From: an uncultured Collinsella sp.
GTDB taxonomy: Bacteria; Actinomycetota; Coriobacteriia; Coriobacteriales; Coriobacteriaceae
Assembly (NCBI GenBank): GCA_934646965.1
Contig: CAKUEZ010000035.1
Location: 1 to 18,288 of the forward strand
DNA length: 18,288 bases
Direction of reading: 5' to 3'
Position numbers and translations under genes: made by a program. A model generated the notes under the pieces. The model had not been told where the DNA came from. It was given only the letters and a program-made list of their open reading frames with translations, and searched no databases. This document shows, piece by piece, positions 59-9,722 of the stretch (the stretch's first letter is position 1; each line of letters starts with the position of its first letter).

Positions 59-222
59 CGCAGGTAGAGAACGGACAGCGAGCGCCCGCCAGAGCGAACA
101 AATTGGCATGAAAAGAGGACGGCATAGGCCTTCTGGTCATGCCGTCCTCTTTGAATGACAAGTTGTCGCTCTGGTGGGCGCGCAGCATCAACTGGTTACG
201 CGGTTTGGTAAAACCGCGTAAC
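59..222 (-). repeat. 164-base two-hairpin element, copy 1
   Basis: On the minus strand this starts three bases past the stop of the RGG gene. Hairpin B comes first (195-222, a perfect 12-bp stem, loop GGTA on the plus strand). A linker follows, then a long imperfect hairpin A: outer arms 82-101 and 163-181, inner perfect 14-bp stem 112-125/139-152, apex CCTTCTGG. The boundary is the plus-strand heptamer CGCAGGT at 59-65. The copy at 1824-1987 has the same length and places the TTCT apex and the GGTA loop at identical offsets, so the two align without gaps. It probably acts as a complex transcription terminator or a structured 3' UTR. A REP-like DNA palindrome is the alternative. Confidence 0.8.
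112..152 (-). terminator. Intrinsic terminator inside copy 1 of the element
   Basis: A perfect 14-bp stem (112-125 with 139-152) encloses an apex containing TTCT on the plus strand. Read on the minus strand it ends in TTTTCA, as expected for termination of the RGG gene that ends at 226. A U run of three or four is weak, but the stem is very stable. It could also act on a plus-strand gene lying left of the window. Confidence 0.7.
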
Positions 223-225
223 TAA

Positions 226-1146
226 TTAGAAACGATTGCCACGGAAGCCGCCGCCGTTGCGGCCGCCACGATCGCCACCGCGACCGCCGCGGTCGTTACC
301 GCGGTTGCCGCCGAAGCCGCCACGGTTGCCACCGCGGTCGCCATAGCCGCCACGGTTGCCGCCGAAGCCGCCGCGACCACCACGGTCGCCGCCGCGGTCA
401 CCAAAGCCGCCACGGCCGCCACGGCCGCCACGATCGCCACCGCGACCGCCACGGTCGCCACCACGGCCACCGCGATCGCCAAAGCCGCCGCGACCGCCAC
501 GGTCGCCGCCGCGGCCACCGCGATCGTCACGACCGCCGCGAGGACCGCGGTCCTCGTCCAGGCCCATGGCGACGAGCGGGGCGATAACCTTATCGAGGGC
601 AGCCATCAGCTCGGTGGCCTCCTCGTAAGAGAGCTCGGGCAGAAGCTTCTCCTTCTTGTTGGCAAGCTCGGTTAGGCCCTCGGCAGCATCCTCAGCAGCG
701 AAGACGACGATCTTGCGCATGTCGCCCTCGACATCGTCGATACGGCCGACCAGGTCGGCAGCCTCGGCCTCGGCCATCAGGCCATCGAGCTCACGAAGGC
801 GCATGCCCAGCAGATCGGACATCTCCTTCTGCTCCATCTTGGGCTTGAGGTCAAGGAGCTTAATGGCGCGCTCGATGTTCGCCATGCGCTCGGCCTTGGC
901 CTCCTCCTCCTTGGAAATAGCAAAGCGACGGCTGCGCAGCAGGCGGGCGGCCTTCTGCATCTTGTCCATCAGCTCTTCGTCATCGTAATCTGCGGCGGCC
1001 TCGACAACCTCGGCCTCCTCCTCGGCGGAAACCTCGTCAGCAGCCTCAACCTCGGCAGCTTCGGTCTCCACGGTCTCGACTGCCTCGACCTCGGCAGCCA
1101 TGGTCTCGTTCTCGGTCTCGTTCATGATCTCTTCGTTCTCAGACAT
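226..1146 (-). CDS. MarR-like winged-helix protein with acidic N-terminus and RGG-box tail
   Basis: 306 residues in three parts. Residues 1-60 are Glu/Ala-rich and very acidic. Residues about 88-160 read like a MarR-type winged helix: QKEMSDLLGMRLRELDGLM as the helix-turn-helix, then DLVGRIDDVEGDMRKIVV as the strand-wing-strand, including the D-x-R wing pattern. Residues 200-306 hold about twenty RGG tripeptides spaced by D, N, F and Y. RGG boxes bind RNA and G-rich nucleic acid; MarR domains bind DNA. The combination suggests a nucleic-acid-binding protein, perhaps RNA-linked, but the target is unknown. The ATG at 1146 has AAGGAG four bases upstream (1151-1158). The RGG repeats create long antisense open frames, which I left out. 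It diverges from the deformylase-like gene at 1359. Confidence 0.8.
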   Translation of the reverse strand: MSENEEIMNETENETMAAEVEAVETVETEAAEVEAADEVSAEEEAEVVEAAADYDDEELMDKMQKAARLLRSRRFAISKEEEAKAERMANIERAIKLLDLKPKMEQKEMSDLLGMRLRELDGLMAEAEAADLVGRIDDVEGDMRKIVVFAAEDAAEGLTELANKKEKLLPELSYEEATELMAALDKVIAPLVAMGLDEDRGPRGGRDDRGGRGGDRGGRGGFGDRGGRGGDRGGRGGDRGGRGGRGGFGDRGGDRGGRGGFGGNRGGYGDRGGNRGGFGGNRGNDRGGRGGDRGGRNGGGFRGNRF

Positions 1147-1150
1147 GAGA

Positions 1151-1158
1151 CTCCTTCT
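1151..1158 (-). promoter_or_regulatory. Ribosome binding site of the RGG gene
   Basis: Reads AGAAGGAG on the minus strand, four bases before the ATG at 1146. It supports this start over later in-frame ATGs. Confidence 0.75.
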
Positions 1159-1302
1159 TGGCCCTCTCGGGCATCATCGCCCCATTCGCGGGGCCCGTCG
1201 CGCACTCTTTGCGCTTATAAAATCATGCCTCTCGGCAAAACGTCCATTAGTTTATGGTGTCGTCCGCCAATCTAGCTGCAGAATCTATGTGCACACATTA
1301 AT

Positions 1303-1322
1303 GCGACATGTCGCGGTATCAT
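1303..1322 (+). promoter_or_regulatory. Palindrome and possible -10 box ahead of the first deformylase-like gene
   Basis: GCGACATGTCGC (1303-1314) is a perfect 12-bp palindrome, followed by TATCAT (1317-1322) as a possible -10. The start codon at 1359 would lie about 30 bases past the transcription start. No good -35 is visible. The position would suit a repressor or activator site, but this is inference from symmetry and placement alone. Confidence 0.35.
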
Positions 1323-1358
1323 GGCGTGAACCAAACGCGCCCATCTAAGGAGCCCGCC

Positions 1359-1769
1359 ATGATCAAGCCCATCATGAAGTCCGAGTTCTTTTTACGCCTA
1401 CCCTCCGAAGACGCCGGCCCCGAAGACGCCGCAACCGGACAGGATCTTCTGGACACCCTGCACGAACACGAGCACGAGTGCGTGGGGCTTGCCGCCAATA
1501 TGATCGGCGTACGCAAACGTATCATCTGCGTAAAGGACGGCAGCAAGTCGTTGCTCATGTACAACCCGCAGATTCTTGAGCAGGTCAACGCCTATCAGAC
1601 CAGCGAAGGATGCCTTTCGCTGGTTGGAGAGCGCCCCTGCACCCGCTATCGTCGCATTAAGGTGGAATACCTGGACGAGAACTTCGTGCACCGCATCAAG
1701 AACTTCTCGGGCTACACCGCCGAGATCATTCAACACGAAATCGACCACTGCAACGGGGTTGTCATTTAA
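1359..1769 (+). CDS. Peptide deformylase-like protein (motif I altered)
   Basis: 136 residues from the ATG at 1359, which has AAGGAG six bases upstream; an upstream in-frame extension to 1308 has no such site. Peptide deformylases remove the N-formyl group from new proteins using a metal bound by one Cys and two His. Motif II (EGCLS, metal Cys) and motif III (QHEIDH, two His and the catalytic Glu) are intact. Motif I reads GLAANMIGV where active enzymes have GxGLAAxQ, so the oxyanion Gln is Met. The protein is also shorter than the usual 150-190 residues. It could be a weak deformylase, a specialised one, or a non-deformylase hydrolase of the fold. The second copy at 9303 has the opposite defect. 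No linked fmt gene is present. Confidence 0.85.
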   Translation: MIKPIMKSEFFLRLPSEDAGPEDAATGQDLLDTLHEHEHECVGLAANMIGVRKRIICVKDGSKSLLMYNPQILEQVNAYQTSEGCLSLVGERPCTRYRRIKVEYLDENFVHRIKNFSGYTAEIIQHEIDHCNGVVI

Positions 1770-1823
1770 ACAGCCAAGGAAAATGAATCGTTTTGCTCCG
1801 TCGCGTGCGGGCCACGATAGCAA

Positions 1824-1987
1824 CGCAGGTTGAGCACACGACAGCGAGCGAGTCGCATTTGCGCCAAGGTGACGTGAAACAAAAGGGCGCTGACCTTCTG
1901 GTCGCGCCCTTGAAGTTGAACGTCAGATTGGCGTGAATGCGGCTCGCGCAGCGTCAAGCGGTCCGCCGTTCGGTAGAACGGCGGAAC
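1824..1987 (-). repeat. 164-base two-hairpin element, copy 2
   Basis: Fills most of the gap between the convergent deformylase-like and aminotransferase genes. Its minus-strand start shares a base with the aminotransferase stop codon. Hairpin B is 1960-1987 with loop GGTA at 1972-1975. Hairpin A has an inner stem 1883-1890/1904-1911, apex GACC-TTCT-GGTC, and imperfect outer arms that reach to about 1837 and 1951. The linker CGCAGCGTCAA and the boundary CGCAGGT match copy 1 almost exactly, while the stems differ by paired changes. Only the stretch 1770-1823 of this intergenic region shows nothing I can name. Confidence 0.8.
1883..1911 (-). terminator. Intrinsic terminator inside copy 2 of the element
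   Basis: Stem AAGGGCGC with GCGCCCTT, continued by GACC/GGTC around a TTCT loop. On the minus strand it is followed by TTGTTTC, which fits termination of the aminotransferase gene. It may also stop plus-strand transcription from the deformylase-like gene. Confidence 0.75.
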
Positions 1988-3507
1988 TATTGTTGACGGT
2001 AGTGATCGAAGAAGTCGGCGAGGTCTTCGAGGGACTCTTTGAGCACTTCCATGCGCGGCAGGTAGACGATGCGGAAGTGGTCGGGCTCGGCCCAGTTAAA
2101 GCCGCCGCCGCGCGTGATCAGAATCTTCTTCTCGTGCAGCAGGTCGAGGGCGAACTGCTCGTCGTCGGTGATGTTGAACTTCTTCACATCCATCTTGGGG
2201 AAGATGTAGAACGCCGCGCGCGGCTTGACCACCGAGATGCCATCGATCTTGCTAAGCGCCTCGTACACAAAGTTACGCTGCTCGTAGACACGACCGCCGG
2301 GGCGAATGTAGTCGTTGACCGATTGATGTCCACCTAGCGCCGTCTGAACGATGGACTGAGCCGGCACGTTAGAGCACAGGCGCATATTCGAAAGCATGTT
2401 GATGCCCATGATGAAGTCGCTCATGCAGCGCTGATTGCCCGAAAGCACCATCCAGCCAATACGGTAGCCTGCGATCATGTGCGACTTGGAAAGGCCGCTA
2501 AAGGTGACGCAGGGCAGGTCGGGAGCGAGCGAGGCAATCGAGACGTGCTCGTAGCCGTCCATGCACAGACGGTCGTAGATCTCGTCGGCAAAGATCATCA
2601 GCTGGTGCCTGCGCGCGATCTCGACGATACCCTCGAGCACCTCACGCGGATAGACGGAACCCGTGGGGTTGTTGGGGTTGATGATGACAAGAGCCTTGGT
2701 CGCGCTCGTGATCTTGGACTCCATATCCTCCAGGTCGGGATACCAATCGGCCTGCTCGTCGCACAGATAGTGCACGGGATGACCGCCGGCAAGGGTTGCG
2801 CACGCCGTCCACAGCGGATAGTCGGGGCTGGGGATCAGGATCTCGTCGCCATTGTCGAGCAGCGCGTTCATCGAAAGCTGAATGAGCTCGGACACGCCGT
2901 TGCCCGTGTAGATGTGCTCCATCTGAACATTGGGCAGGCCCTTGATCTGCGAGTACTGCATAATCGCTTTGCGCGCAGAGAACAGGCCACGCGAGTTGGA
3001 ATAGCCTTCGCAGTCGGGCAGCTGCTGGCGCATGTCCTTAATGACTTCATCGGGCGTGCGGAAACCGAAGGGCGCCGGGTTACCGATATTGAGTTTGAGG
3101 ATGCGCTCGCCCTCGTCCTCCATACGGGCAGCCTCGTCGACGACGGGACCGCGTACGTCATACAGGACGTTATCGAGCTTGGCGGATTTAGAAAAAGTGC
3201 GCATGGTGGTGCTCCTTGCAATTTGAGCCGTGGGGTTAGGCTCGGATTTGGCAACGTTATGGGACGAGGACGTCTCGCCTTGGTCAGCGTCACTGGCGAG
3301 CAGCCAGGTAACATCGACCTCCAAAATACGGGCGAGCAACTCTGCCACATCGCGCCGCGGGATCGTCTTGCCGCTCACATATTGGCTCATCTGACTCTTG
3401 CCGAGTTTTTTGCCGAGCATCTCCGATGCGCGGATCACGTCCGACTGGCGAACGTCGCGATCGGACATAGCCTGTCGCAGGCGATCGCTAAACGTCTCTT
3501 GGGCCAC
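1987..3507 (-). CDS. alaA: XRE-type regulator fused to AlaA-like alanine aminotransferase
   Basis: 506 residues from a GTG at 3507 with AAGGAGG five bases upstream (3513-3519); the upstream ATG at 3546 lacks a site and overlaps the promoter. Residues about 4-75 are an XRE helix-turn-helix (KLGKSQMSQYVSGKTIP is the recognition region). A loose Ser/Asn/Pro linker follows. From residue 102 the sequence closely resembles the whole of E. coli AlaA: KLNIGNPAPFGF, YTGNGVSELI, NPNNPTG, and SGLSK with the PLP lysine at 341 (240 in AlaA numbering). AlaA makes alanine from pyruvate and glutamate. The layout parallels MocR proteins, which join a GntR domain to an aminotransferase, but here the DNA-binding part is XRE and the enzyme looks complete. 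An in-frame ATG at 3204 with its own ribosome site could make the enzyme alone. Confidence 0.9.
   Translation of the reverse strand: MAQETFSDRLRQAMSDRDVRQSDVIRASEMLGKKLGKSQMSQYVSGKTIPRRDVAELLARILEVDVTWLLASDADQGETSSSHNVAKSEPNPTAQIARSTTMRTFSKSAKLDNVLYDVRGPVVDEAARMEDEGERILKLNIGNPAPFGFRTPDEVIKDMRQQLPDCEGYSNSRGLFSARKAIMQYSQIKGLPNVQMEHIYTGNGVSELIQLSMNALLDNGDEILIPSPDYPLWTACATLAGGHPVHYLCDEQADWYPDLEDMESKITSATKALVIINPNNPTGSVYPREVLEGIVEIARRHQLMIFADEIYDRLCMDGYEHVSIASLAPDLPCVTFSGLSKSHMIAGYRIGWMVLSGNQRCMSDFIMGINMLSNMRLCSNVPAQSIVQTALGGHQSVNDYIRPGGRVYEQRNFVYEALSKIDGISVVKPRAAFYIFPKMDVKKFNITDDEQFALDLLHEKKILITRGGGFNWAEPDHFRIVYLPRMEVLKESLEDLADFFDHYRQQ
3204..3217 (-). promoter_or_regulatory. Internal ribosome site and start for a free AlaA enzyme
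   Basis: AAGGAG (3212-3217) lies seven bases before an in-frame ATG ending at 3204. Initiation there would give a 405-residue protein beginning MRTFSKSAKL, which matches where AlaA enzymes begin. Use of this start is inferred from sequence only. Confidence 0.5.
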
Positions 3508-8091: not shown

Positions 8092-9057
8092 CTACGAACG
8101 ACGCGGCTCGGGAACCACGAGCTTATCGGGGCTCGCGCCCTCGGCATCCATCAGGCTCACGTAGCGAATCGACGGATCCTCATACATCGCGTAGTAATAA
8201 TTGCCCGTGCGCGCGCTAAAGCATCCGGTATAGATAGTCTTCTCGAACTTGCCATCGCCCATCCTGGACGCGCCCTCGATCATCACCACGCCCTCGAGTG
8301 AACGGAACATACGGACGACGTTTTCGGCCTCGCTCTCTTTTTGCGGATAGTTGGCATTGAGATACGCCGCTTTTACAAAACGGCTCGGCGAATAGCAATC
8401 GCCCGGAATGCCGCGCATGCCGGCACCGGCTCCATAGGGCTTAAGCTCGGCGCCACGCCATGTCGCCGTCTGCGGAAAATCGCTTGTGGCGGTGATATAG
8501 GTGCGCAGGTTTTCCATATGCCACGGGAAGGTGGGCTGATTGGCAAGGGTGTCGACCGGATTGTCGTATACATGCAGGCCATCGGCCATCATCTCGACCA
8601 CGATGCTACGCTGGCTGTCGCCGATAATCCAATGGAGCAGCGACACGCCCAGGCCTTCGCCCGCCGATTTGGCCACGATCGCCACGTCACGCAGCGCCAC
8701 CTCAACCTCATCGACCGTCGAAAACGTCGCGGCGACCCACAGGGGAAACTCGTAGGCCGCGATATTGGTCTTGCCGTCAACAGGGTCCTCGGCATACTCG
8801 GCATAACCCGGGAAATTGAGACCCGCCACGGCGAGGCCCGCATCGTTGCCGCAGTCGAAGAACATAGGGTAGTTCTTGTAATCGATGCACATACCGATCA
8901 CTGCGTGTGCCGCCGTCGCGTCGTCGATAAACGAATACGGAATGTGAAACCCGCGTGGCATCACGCGAACCTGTTGGCCGTAGTCAAAGCTCCAGTCGAG
9001 GTTGCGGCCCAAATACATATGGCCGGAATTATCGGTAAATCGAATGCTCGTGCACAT
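8092..9057 (-). CDS. Choloylglycine hydrolase (bile salt hydrolase family)
   Basis: 321 residues. The family cleaves the amide bond of glycine- or taurine-conjugated bile acids; some members act on penicillin V or other amides. It is an N-terminal nucleophile hydrolase: Met1 is removed and Cys2 (MCTS) becomes the nucleophile. Other catalytic residues are visible: R18 and D21 in GRNLDW, N81 in AGLNFPGYA, N173 in LANQPTF, and the Arg of SPSRFVKAA. Length fits the family, and there is no signal peptide, so it is cytoplasmic. AGGAGG lies four bases before the ATG. Bile salt versus penicillin V preference cannot be settled from sequence alone; gut context favours bile salts. Confidence 0.93.
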   Translation of the reverse strand: MCTSIRFTDNSGHMYLGRNLDWSFDYGQQVRVMPRGFHIPYSFIDDATAAHAVIGMCIDYKNYPMFFDCGNDAGLAVAGLNFPGYAEYAEDPVDGKTNIAAYEFPLWVAATFSTVDEVEVALRDVAIVAKSAGEGLGVSLLHWIIGDSQRSIVVEMMADGLHVYDNPVDTLANQPTFPWHMENLRTYITATSDFPQTATWRGAELKPYGAGAGMRGIPGDCYSPSRFVKAAYLNANYPQKESEAENVVRMFRSLEGVVMIEGASRMGDGKFEKTIYTGCFSARTGNYYYAMYEDPSIRYVSLMDAEGASPDKLVVPEPRRS

Positions 9058-9191: not shown

Positions 9192-9308
9192 CGCAGGTCG
9201 TCTAAGGGGTCAAAGTGCCGCAGATTGCCACGAAAGAGGAGCGAAGCGTACTTAAGGTACGCGAGCGACGATTGAGCGGCAAGGTGCGGTGCTTTGGTCC
9301 CCTTAGAC
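9192..9308. repeat. Palindromic, MITE-like element overlapping a stop codon
   Basis: The ends GTCTAAGGGG (9200-9209) and CCCCTTAGAC (9299-9308) are perfect inverted repeats, extended with few mismatches to about 23 bases per arm. Inside are TTGCC/GGCAA (9225-9229/9278-9282) and a central GCGTAC/GTACGC (9246-9251/9257-9262). The right end contains the stop codon of the deformylase-like gene at 9303-9305. The left flank carries CGCAGGT (9192-9198), the same heptamer that bounds the two 164-base elements. No target-site duplication was obvious. Confidence 0.6.
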
Positions 9309-9722
9309 CAACTTTCCTAGACAATGGTCGATCATGTGTTGAATCATCTGCGCCTCGAAGCCCACAAAGTCCTGCTTGCGCTCGCGCATCTTGCCGTCGA
9401 CGATCACGTCATAAGCAACCTTGCACTTGATATAGCGCGTGGACTTGGTGACCTCCTCGTGCGTCAGGCAGCTCTCCTCCATCTTGCTGGCGCCCAGGCC
9501 AAACACCAGGCGGGGGTTGTAGAGCACATGGGGCTCGCCGGCGTCGTCCAGGTAGACGCAGACCTTCTTGGTAACGCCAATCTGGTTAGCGGCAAGGCAG
9601 CCGGCATCGTCGAGCGACTTGATGGTATCGATCAGGTCCTGAGCAACCGACTCGTCCTCGACGGTCGCAACCTCACAACGCTGGGACAGGATAGCCTCGT
9701 CGTGGCAAAGCTCTTTAATCAT
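9303..9722 (-). CDS. Deformylase-like protein lacking the catalytic Glu
   Basis: 139 residues from the ATG at 9722, preceded by GGAGG five bases upstream; an extension to 9770 has no ribosome site and would cross the likely -10 (TATACT). Motif I is intact (CLAANQIGV, with Gln). Motif II is ESCLT instead of EGCLS, keeping the metal Cys. Motif III is QHMIDH instead of HExDH: the two metal His remain, but the catalytic Glu is Met. In known deformylases that Glu is essential, so this protein probably binds metal but does not deformylate by the usual route. It shares general layout with the protein at 1359 but is not a close copy. Its last codons and stop lie in a palindromic repeat. Confidence 0.82.
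   Translation of the reverse strand: MIKELCHDEAILSQRCEVATVEDESVAQDLIDTIKSLDDAGCLAANQIGVTKKVCVYLDDAGEPHVLYNPRLVFGLGASKMEESCLTHEEVTKSTRYIKCKVAYDVIVDGKMRERKQDFVGFEAQMIQHMIDHCLGKLV

What the first reader, a model, noticed from the sequence alone, without database searches (positions are those of the whole stretch)
59..1987. A 164-base, two-hairpin element occurs twice, each time directly at a minus-strand stop codon
Copies at 59-222 and 1824-1987 have identical length and align without gaps: the TTCT apex is at offset 72-75 and the GGTA loop at offset 148-151 in both. Fixed loops and linker (CGCAGC-R-TCAA, CGCAGGT boundary) combine with different stem sequences. Both begin within three bases of the stop codon of a minus-strand gene. 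This looks like a defined repeat or RNA family rather than two unrelated terminators. It might act as a 3'-end processing or termination module, or give a 3' UTR-derived small RNA.
Basis: seen in the sequence. Interest (0 to 1): 0.78.

Follow-up and report, generated by a model that had tools for sequence, protein, structure and literature searches.

The report
Two-hairpin repeat hugging gene ends
Collinsella and related gut bacteria carry many copies of a roughly 165-base folded DNA repeat placed almost exactly at the ends of genes; its letters change from copy to copy while the fold stays the same, and closely related species can carry different versions at the same gene end, which makes it an unusual relative of known palindromic repeats.

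Summary
Both 164-base copies exist as described and belong to a large dispersed family. A covariance model gives 36-52 matches in 21 of 43 genomes of the genus and 17-43 in eight chosen genomes of other genera of the order. In a phylum-wide draw, hits fell only inside that order (12 of 296 genomes). No Rfam family matches.

Covariation is strong: 40 of 45 pairs change on both sides. The small hairpin lies -3 to 12 nt from a coding stop codon in 53 of 64 and 22 of 32 copies, against 0 of 640 and 5 of 320 shifted controls.

Two surprises. The strand antisense to that gene folds better in 109 of 109 copies (RNA energies). Of nine gene ends filled in both of two sister species, seven carry clearly different family members despite conserved flanks.

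I read it as a REP-like repeat with a new, larger architecture that moves or is exchanged between gene ends. Termination, 3'-processing or sRNA roles are not shown. No transposase partner was found.

The parts
59..222 (+). Copy 1, whole element, in the orientation of the better-folding strand (antisense to the gene 226-1146)
   Evidence: (model hit 57-224, 162 bits)
59..72 (+). Copy 1, boundary segment (CGCAGGTAGAG...)
   Evidence: and alignments
78..186 (+). Copy 1, long nested hairpin HP2
   Evidence: fold, -79.6 kcal/mol, z -12.2; opposite strand -67.8
195..222 (+). Copy 1, small hairpin HP1 (12-bp stem, loop GGTA)
226..1146 (-). Gene whose stop codon (TAA 226-228) abuts copy 1; C-terminal Gly/Arg-rich repeats; no Pfam family
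1824..1987 (+). Copy 2, whole element, same orientation
   Evidence: (model hit 1822-1989, 160.3 bits)
1844..1952 (+). Copy 2, long nested hairpin HP2
   Evidence: minus strand fold, z -8.5; alignment
1962..1985 (+). Copy 2, small hairpin HP1 (10-bp stem, loop GGTA)
1987..3507 (-). Aminotransferase gene with N-terminal HTH (PF00155; HTH below cut-off) whose stop codon TAG 1987-1989 abuts copy 2
1308..1769 (+). Convergent peptide deformylase gene (PF01327); in three relatives the element abuts the stop codon of this gene instead
9206..9301 (+). Third, core-only match (model positions 29-123) at the stop codon of gene 9303-9722(-); outer stem runs across the stop codon

Best explanation
A REP/BIME-like dispersed palindromic repeat family of Collinsella and kin, larger and more structured than known REPs. 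In the direction of the gene a unit reads: stop codon, 0-7 nt, small hairpin HP1, linker, long nested hairpin HP2, boundary. Shown here: copy number, position at gene 3' ends, covariation, which strand folds better, presence/absence between species, exchange of modules between copies. Inferred: copies reach and replace one another at gene 3' ends by recombination between copies and/or an enzyme acting on the folded single strand; insertions survive best right behind a gene; arm-to-arm template switching may help keep stems paired while letters drift; and the hairpins, once transcribed, act as E. coli REPs are reported to do, as a barrier at the mRNA 3' end and, lying under 15 nt from the stop codon, perhaps as a brake on translation. 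What recognises the folded antisense strand, and whether as DNA or RNA, is open.
For: Family and copy number. Covariation. Position: 53 of 64 and 22 of 32 copies within -3..12 nt of a coding stop, controls 0 of 640 and 5 of 320. Exchange: 7 of 9 shared sites of G015/G008 only 69-82% identical with flanks 89-98% identical, while two copies at different loci of G008 are 96% identical; modules swapped at the copy-1 site in 10 close relatives; inversion to the neighbouring gene's stop codon in three relatives; chimeric arms in two copies. Gain: one site filled in 3 genomes and clean in 7 close ones. Likeness to REPs in position and TAG use: section 15 of PMC3733652; TAG at 39 of 53 element-adjacent Collinsella genes against 322 of 671 overall.
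Against: No dedicated enzyme found: Y1/RAYT-like genes occur in 16 of the 18 genus genomes searched but 18 of 20 fetched Y1 regions hold no element and the other two only one about 6 kb away. No target-site duplication at the filled/empty site. Outside Collinsella no two sampled copies of a genome are over 85% identical, so recent spread is seen only in Collinsella. The translation and mRNA effects are borrowed from E. coli REPs, and the antisense strand preference is not explained by them.
Confidence: 0.55

Rival explanations
1. A gene-end terminator or mRNA 3'-end stabiliser working as RNA of the gene's own strand: HP1, or the apex of HP2 with the pyrimidine-rich tract behind it, ends or protects the transcript.
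For: Position right behind stop codons; a copy behind a tRNA gene with TTTTTT after HP1; ordinary terminators at orthologous gene ends without the element (copy-2 site in 5 relatives; two G015 sites in G008; two distant relatives at the copy-1 site).
Against: No U-run behind either hairpin in most printed copies; the terminator scan finds nothing on the minus strand at either window copy (it does flag HP1 of copy 2 on the + strand). 23 of 32 copies outside the genus lie between same-direction genes, often 2-30 nt before the next gene. The gene's own strand folds worse in 109 of 109 copies, and the conserved tandem wobble would be mismatched on it.
Confidence: 0.25
2. A structured antisense RNA: the better-folding strand is transcribed and acts on or shields the 3' end of the opposite gene.
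For: Fold energies; 30 G-U against 7 A-C cells in the genus alignment (counted); tandem U.G/G.U conserved in 32 and 27 of 47 copies; UUCG among the apices.
Against: No conserved promoter-like motif in 75 bases before the conserved GTCAGCGAG in 48 copies (read by eye from the printed rows and profile); in same-direction contexts nothing obvious would transcribe that strand. HP1 loops are GNYA or GNA and hardly ever GNRA. In Collinsella the numbers of G-U pairs in the two strands' best folds are similar, 150 of 3854 against 131 of 3732.
Confidence: 0.1
3. Mainly a mutational product: long quasi-palindromes that are kept paired by template switching during replication, without a function of their own.
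For: Template switching can create and repair stems (abstract of PMC8794818). Orthologs A_319450 and D_123293 share an odd CACATTG but differ on both arms of one stem. Strand polarity to replication outside the genus: 84 of 89 listed copies.
Against: Such correction should also erase the unpaired G/A-rich sites and the tandem wobble, yet these are conserved between genera. It does not explain the fixed distance to gene ends.
Confidence: 0.1

Closest known systems
REP elements of the GTAG superfamily and their dimers/BIMEs, with RAYT transposases (PMC3733652: outline, passages and section 15 seen)
   Same: High-copy dispersed palindromes, mostly behind coding regions and close to the 3' end; often provide a TAG stop codon; RAYT-like proteins exist in the genus (NF047646 at E 2.5e-15 and 6.9e-15, below its cut-off).
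   Different: 164-170 bases with two unlike hairpins instead of 20-40 bp; no GTAG tag at the hairpin foot; Y1 genes not flanked by the element; stems differ almost completely between copies outside Collinsella.
CGTC-tagged REPs (same paper)
   Same: CGTC occurs 5' of both hairpins on the better-folding strand in many copies (CGTCAGCG, GCGTCGA); no dedicated transposase known.
   Different: Described stems are 8-9 bp starting with A-T pairs and with a CCA-like tail; here 12-bp and much longer stems starting with G-C; the CGTC is not directly at the hairpin foot. That paper names five phyla for CGTC repeats, Actinobacteria not among them.
E. coli REPs within 15 nt of a stop codon (passages of PMC12306157)
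   Same: Same distance range to the stop codon; reported there to lower translation.
   Different: Only about 11% of E. coli REPs lie so close according to that passage; here most copies do.
Collinsella-1 RNA motif (RF01700; one table row of PMC2864571 seen)
   Same: Actinobacteria, human gut.
   Different: No Rfam match at gathering score in the window, nor any Collinsella-1 hit at E up to 5 in 1-2100.
Intrinsic (Rho-independent) terminators
   Same: Hairpins at gene ends; occupy places where relatives have terminators.
   Different: No general U-run; second, very long hairpin; strand preference opposite to the gene.

Membership tests
REP, GTAG superfamily | 20-40 bp palindrome with unpaired GTAG at one end | tested here: not met
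   164-170 bases, two hairpins, conserved foot GTCAGCGAG / CGCAGCGTCGA
REP, GTAG superfamily | RAYT gene flanked by the repeats | tested here: not met
   18 of 20 Y1 regions without any element at E 1e-6, two with one about 6 kb away
REP in the wide sense | High-copy dispersed palindromes, mostly behind coding regions | tested here: met
REP, CGTC superfamily | Stem of 8-9 bp opening with A-T pairs, loop of 4-5, CGTC at the foot | tested here: not met
   HP1 stem mostly 12 bp opening with G-C, CGTC set off from the foot; description from passages
Intrinsic terminator | G+C-rich hairpin followed by a U-run on the transcribed strand | tested here: not met
   No minus-strand site at the window copies; printed copies lack it except the tRNA copy
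Rfam families incl. Collinsella-1 | Match at the curated score | tested here: not met
   0 matches in the window; only chance-level hits below
MITE / IS-derived element | Terminal inverted repeats and target-site duplication, related transposase | tested here: inconclusive
   One filled/empty site shows replacement of about 13 nt and no duplication; other pairs too diverged; of transposases only Y1 was searched
Functional structured RNA | Covariation plus a transcribed strand | tested here: inconclusive
   Covariation met; transcription not testable with these tools

The most novel reading that the evidence does not exclude
A previously undescribed class of strand-specific folded element (single-stranded DNA or antisense RNA) that marks gene 3' ends across an order of gut bacteria, exchangeable as a cassette between stop codons, with G/A-rich internal loops, a tandem wobble and GNYA/GNA hairpin loops read by an unknown factor, and outside Collinsella held almost always in one orientation to the replication fork.
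Probability: 0.25. Interest if true: 0.85.

Novelty: new variant of a known kind. Interest (0 to 1): 0.62.

Why it matters
A high-copy repeat locked to gene ends in common human gut bacteria appears in none of the libraries searched. Sister species carry different versions, or none, at the same stop codon, a natural experiment on what such elements do to expression. The fold is better on the strand opposite to the gene, so the question of what reads that strand becomes directly testable. If it is a single-strand-DNA enzyme or an antisense transcript, REP biology would extend to this group with a different architecture.

Tried and rejected
RAYT/REP partnership: tested through Y1 searches and neighbourhoods, not supported.

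Lagging-strand single-strand transposition (IS200/IS605 style, recalled): the strand switch at mid-genome first looked like support. With dnaA placed the better-folding strand is the leading-strand template, the opposite of that prediction. In Collinsella the polarity (74 of 92) does not exceed gene orientation bias (73-77% of genes on the majority strand). Outside the genus it does (84 of 89 listed copies; 32 of 32 copies against 239 of 352 genes in 20 windows that I had chosen around listed copies). Unexplained.

Element supplying the stop codon: TAG excess in Collinsella (39 of 53 against 322 of 671), small outside (13 of 22 against 163 of 353).

Promoter at the left boundary: no conserved motif seen. 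Integron attC likeness: considered from memory only, not tested.

Rows dropped or lists cut: polarity lists of G134, G116, G172 use the 32 of 38, 31 of 43 and 26 of 36 matches printed; Collinsella lists use full-length matches. Of 37 matches I used 32 and dropped 5 of under 50 bits. Of 30 other-genus loci, 13 entered the 45; one search printed 28 of 30. The 64 Collinsella copies include orthologs and are not independent. 11 of 64 and 10 of 32 copies have no scored coding stop beside HP1: one is the tRNA copy; B_367892 has a TGA there that my caller did not score as coding; the rest were not resolved. A B-region partial copy (B204087) was left out of the nine shared sites.

Full report
OBSERVATION. 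The two copies exist as described: 164 bases each, same offsets, 79 of 164 positions identical without gaps (2000 shuffles: mean 42.7, maximum 66). The stretches folded lie far beyond dinucleotide shuffles. Minus-strand stop codons lie 3 nt away (copy 1) or overlap by one base (copy 2). A third, core-only match is at 9206-9301.

A FAMILY. blastn of copy 2 in 29 relatives gave 23-33 matches in 11 of the 18 genomes of the window's genus, 3-8 in three more (best E 1e-9 to 1e-11), and only chance-level ones in the other four genus genomes and in other genera. A covariance model from 25 full copies of two genomes and the window found matches at E <= 1e-4 in 39 of 43 genus genomes: 36-52 in 21, 1-25 in 18, none in 4 (core-only matches included). 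In a class-wide draw 67 of 197 genomes, in 25 of 93 genera, had matches (14 candidates scored per genome). Eight genomes chosen from those hits, of eight other genera, had 17-43 matches each. In a phylum-wide draw 12 of 296 genomes had matches at E <= 1e-6, all in the window's order (9 candidates scored per genome, so weak copies could be missed); the model does not simply ring on any long hairpin. Rfam: nothing at gathering score in the window, chance-level hits in 1-2100.

ANATOMY. Outside Collinsella stems differ almost completely between most copies while these motifs stay. Covariation: 31 of 45 pairs changed on both sides among 25 copies; among 47 copies of other genera 95.3% of cells pair (shuffled 69.3%, slid 34-44%) and 40 of 45 pairs have double changes (that alignment was fitted to the model, which favours the structure). 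In 0.8 Mb of G015 all 10 stop-adjacent hairpins with a TACC, TAAC or TCC loop (gene strand) are followed by the core: nine flagged by the pattern, the tenth (B 185305) seen in the sequence printed.

WHICH STRAND. The strand antisense to the stop-codon gene folds better in 64 of 64 genus copies and 45 of 45 others with RNA energies, and in 62 of 64 and 44 of 45 with DNA energies. Part of this comes from the G/A-rich internal loops. In the genus alignment I count 30 G-U against 7 A-C cells from the table; but the numbers of G-U pairs in the best folds of the two strands are similar in Collinsella (150 of 3854 against 131 of 3732) and differ outside it (240 of 2748 against 97 of 2596). Outside the genus a tandem wobble is conserved (U.G in 32 and G.U in 27 of 47 copies, the rest Watson-Crick but for one cell), mismatches on the other strand. 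HP1 loops outside the genus: GNYA 32 of 45, GNA 7, GNRA 2, others 4; in Collinsella GNYA 58 of 64, GNA 3, GNRA 1, others 2. From memory, GNNA and GNA loops are unusually stable in DNA hairpins and RNA prefers GNRA; a paper search (listing) brought up no source that I read for this. The loops lean towards DNA, the tandem wobble and UUCG apices towards RNA; I cannot decide.

POSITION. With a codon-usage score trained on the same or like genomes, a coding stop codon lies -3..12 nt before HP1 in 53 of 64 genus copies and 22 of 32 others; at ten shifted positions the same test gives 0 of 640 and 5 of 320, at the other end on the other strand 0 of 64 and 4 of 32. Distances run from -2 to 7. One G015 copy follows a tRNA gene by about 10 nt (tRNA by Rfam), with TTTTTT after HP1. 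Of 32 copies outside the genus 23 lie before a same-direction gene, 8 before a convergent one, one is undetermined.

EVOLUTION. Of 14 G015 hits with the HP1 end in the two fetched stretches, 9 have an element at the orthologous place in G008, 4 do not, 1 has no ortholog; one G008 copy is missing in G015. At the nine shared places the elements are 69-82% identical at seven and 94 and 99% at two, with upstream flanks 89-98% identical. Two copies at different loci of G008 are 96% identical. At the copy-1 site the 10 close relatives found all carry an element, nine full and one internally deleted, with HP1, core and boundary exchanged between species and a compensated change in HP1 of L270; three distant relatives have none. 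At the copy-2 site, of 11 close relatives, five have a plain terminator in the same neighbourhood, two a terminator before another neighbour, one the element in the same place, three the element inverted at the stop codon of the convergent deformylase gene. Another G015 site is filled in three genomes, clean in seven close ones, holds another insertion in G011, and is without it in three distant ones; the difference is a replacement of about 13 nt, without target duplication. Arms look chimeric in two copies, L117 and L142. So copies are exchanged, gained and lost.

REPLICATION. dnaA gives the origin. Outside the genus the stop-codon gene is on the leading strand in 84 of 89 listed copies of three single-contig genomes, and in 32 of 32 copies of 20 windows chosen around listed copies, where 239 of 352 genes are leading (binomial p 4e-6; the two sets of copies overlap). 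In Collinsella 74 of 92, no more than the gene bias of 73-77%. I have no good explanation; avoidance of the stronger hairpin on the lagging-strand template is one idea.

MECHANISM. Shown: family, position, structure, better-folding strand, exchange between copies. Inferred: spread or replacement by recombination or an enzyme acting on a folded single strand; help from template switching (abstract of PMC8794818); REP-like action on mRNA 3' ends. Passages of PMC12306157 report that E. coli REPs within 15 nt of a stop codon lower translation; the copies scored lie in that range. A terminator role is the main rival, an antisense RNA the next.

KNOWN KINDS. Outline, passages and section 15 of PMC3733652 describe GTAG and CGTC REPs; neither description is met, though position and behaviour are alike. 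A term search in PMC12306157 found no Collinsella, Eggerthella, Coriobacter or Gordonibacter. Passages of PMC8040213 mention 250 palindromic candidate RNAs of human microbiomes, none that I could identify with this one; its supplementary tables were not open to me. The listings showed no paper on such a family in this group; subscription papers are mostly not in that library.

VERDICT. Confirmed observation, partly supported interpretation; a large REP-like family with a new architecture, an unexplained strand preference and cassette-like turnover.

Noticed in passing
window 9194-9316: Third, core-only copy of the element; the stop codon (9303-9305) of a peptide deformylase gene lies inside its outer stem.
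   Followed up: partly
window 1308-1769 (+) and 9303-9722 (-): Two peptide deformylase genes (PF01327) in one 18-kb window, both with an element nearby at a gene end.
   Followed up: no
window 8092-9057 (-): Choloylglycine/bile-salt hydrolase family gene (PF02275).
   Followed up: no
L077, L081, L083, L084, L085, behind the aminotransferase stop codon: Most of these empty copy-2 sites keep GTTCCGC...GCGGAAC-like arms around a plain intrinsic terminator, as if HP1 arms enclosed it.
   Followed up: no
L076, L270-L272, L275 and the printed flanks of several G015 copies: A second repeated motif (TTGGGGACGTTC..., GGGGACGGAGGAAAACGGAT...) often follows just beyond the element.
   Followed up: no
L263 (G011), behind the stop codon orthologous to G015:C1:192121: A different palindrome (GTGGGACAAATTCATGATGAATTTGTCCCACC) sits at a site that is empty in seven relatives.
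   Followed up: no
G015, G005, G013, G004, G017 (L186-L188, L190, L192, L199, L200): RAYT-like Y1 proteins with a longer C-terminal part; two tested match NF047646 below its cut-off; partner repeats unknown.
   Followed up: partly
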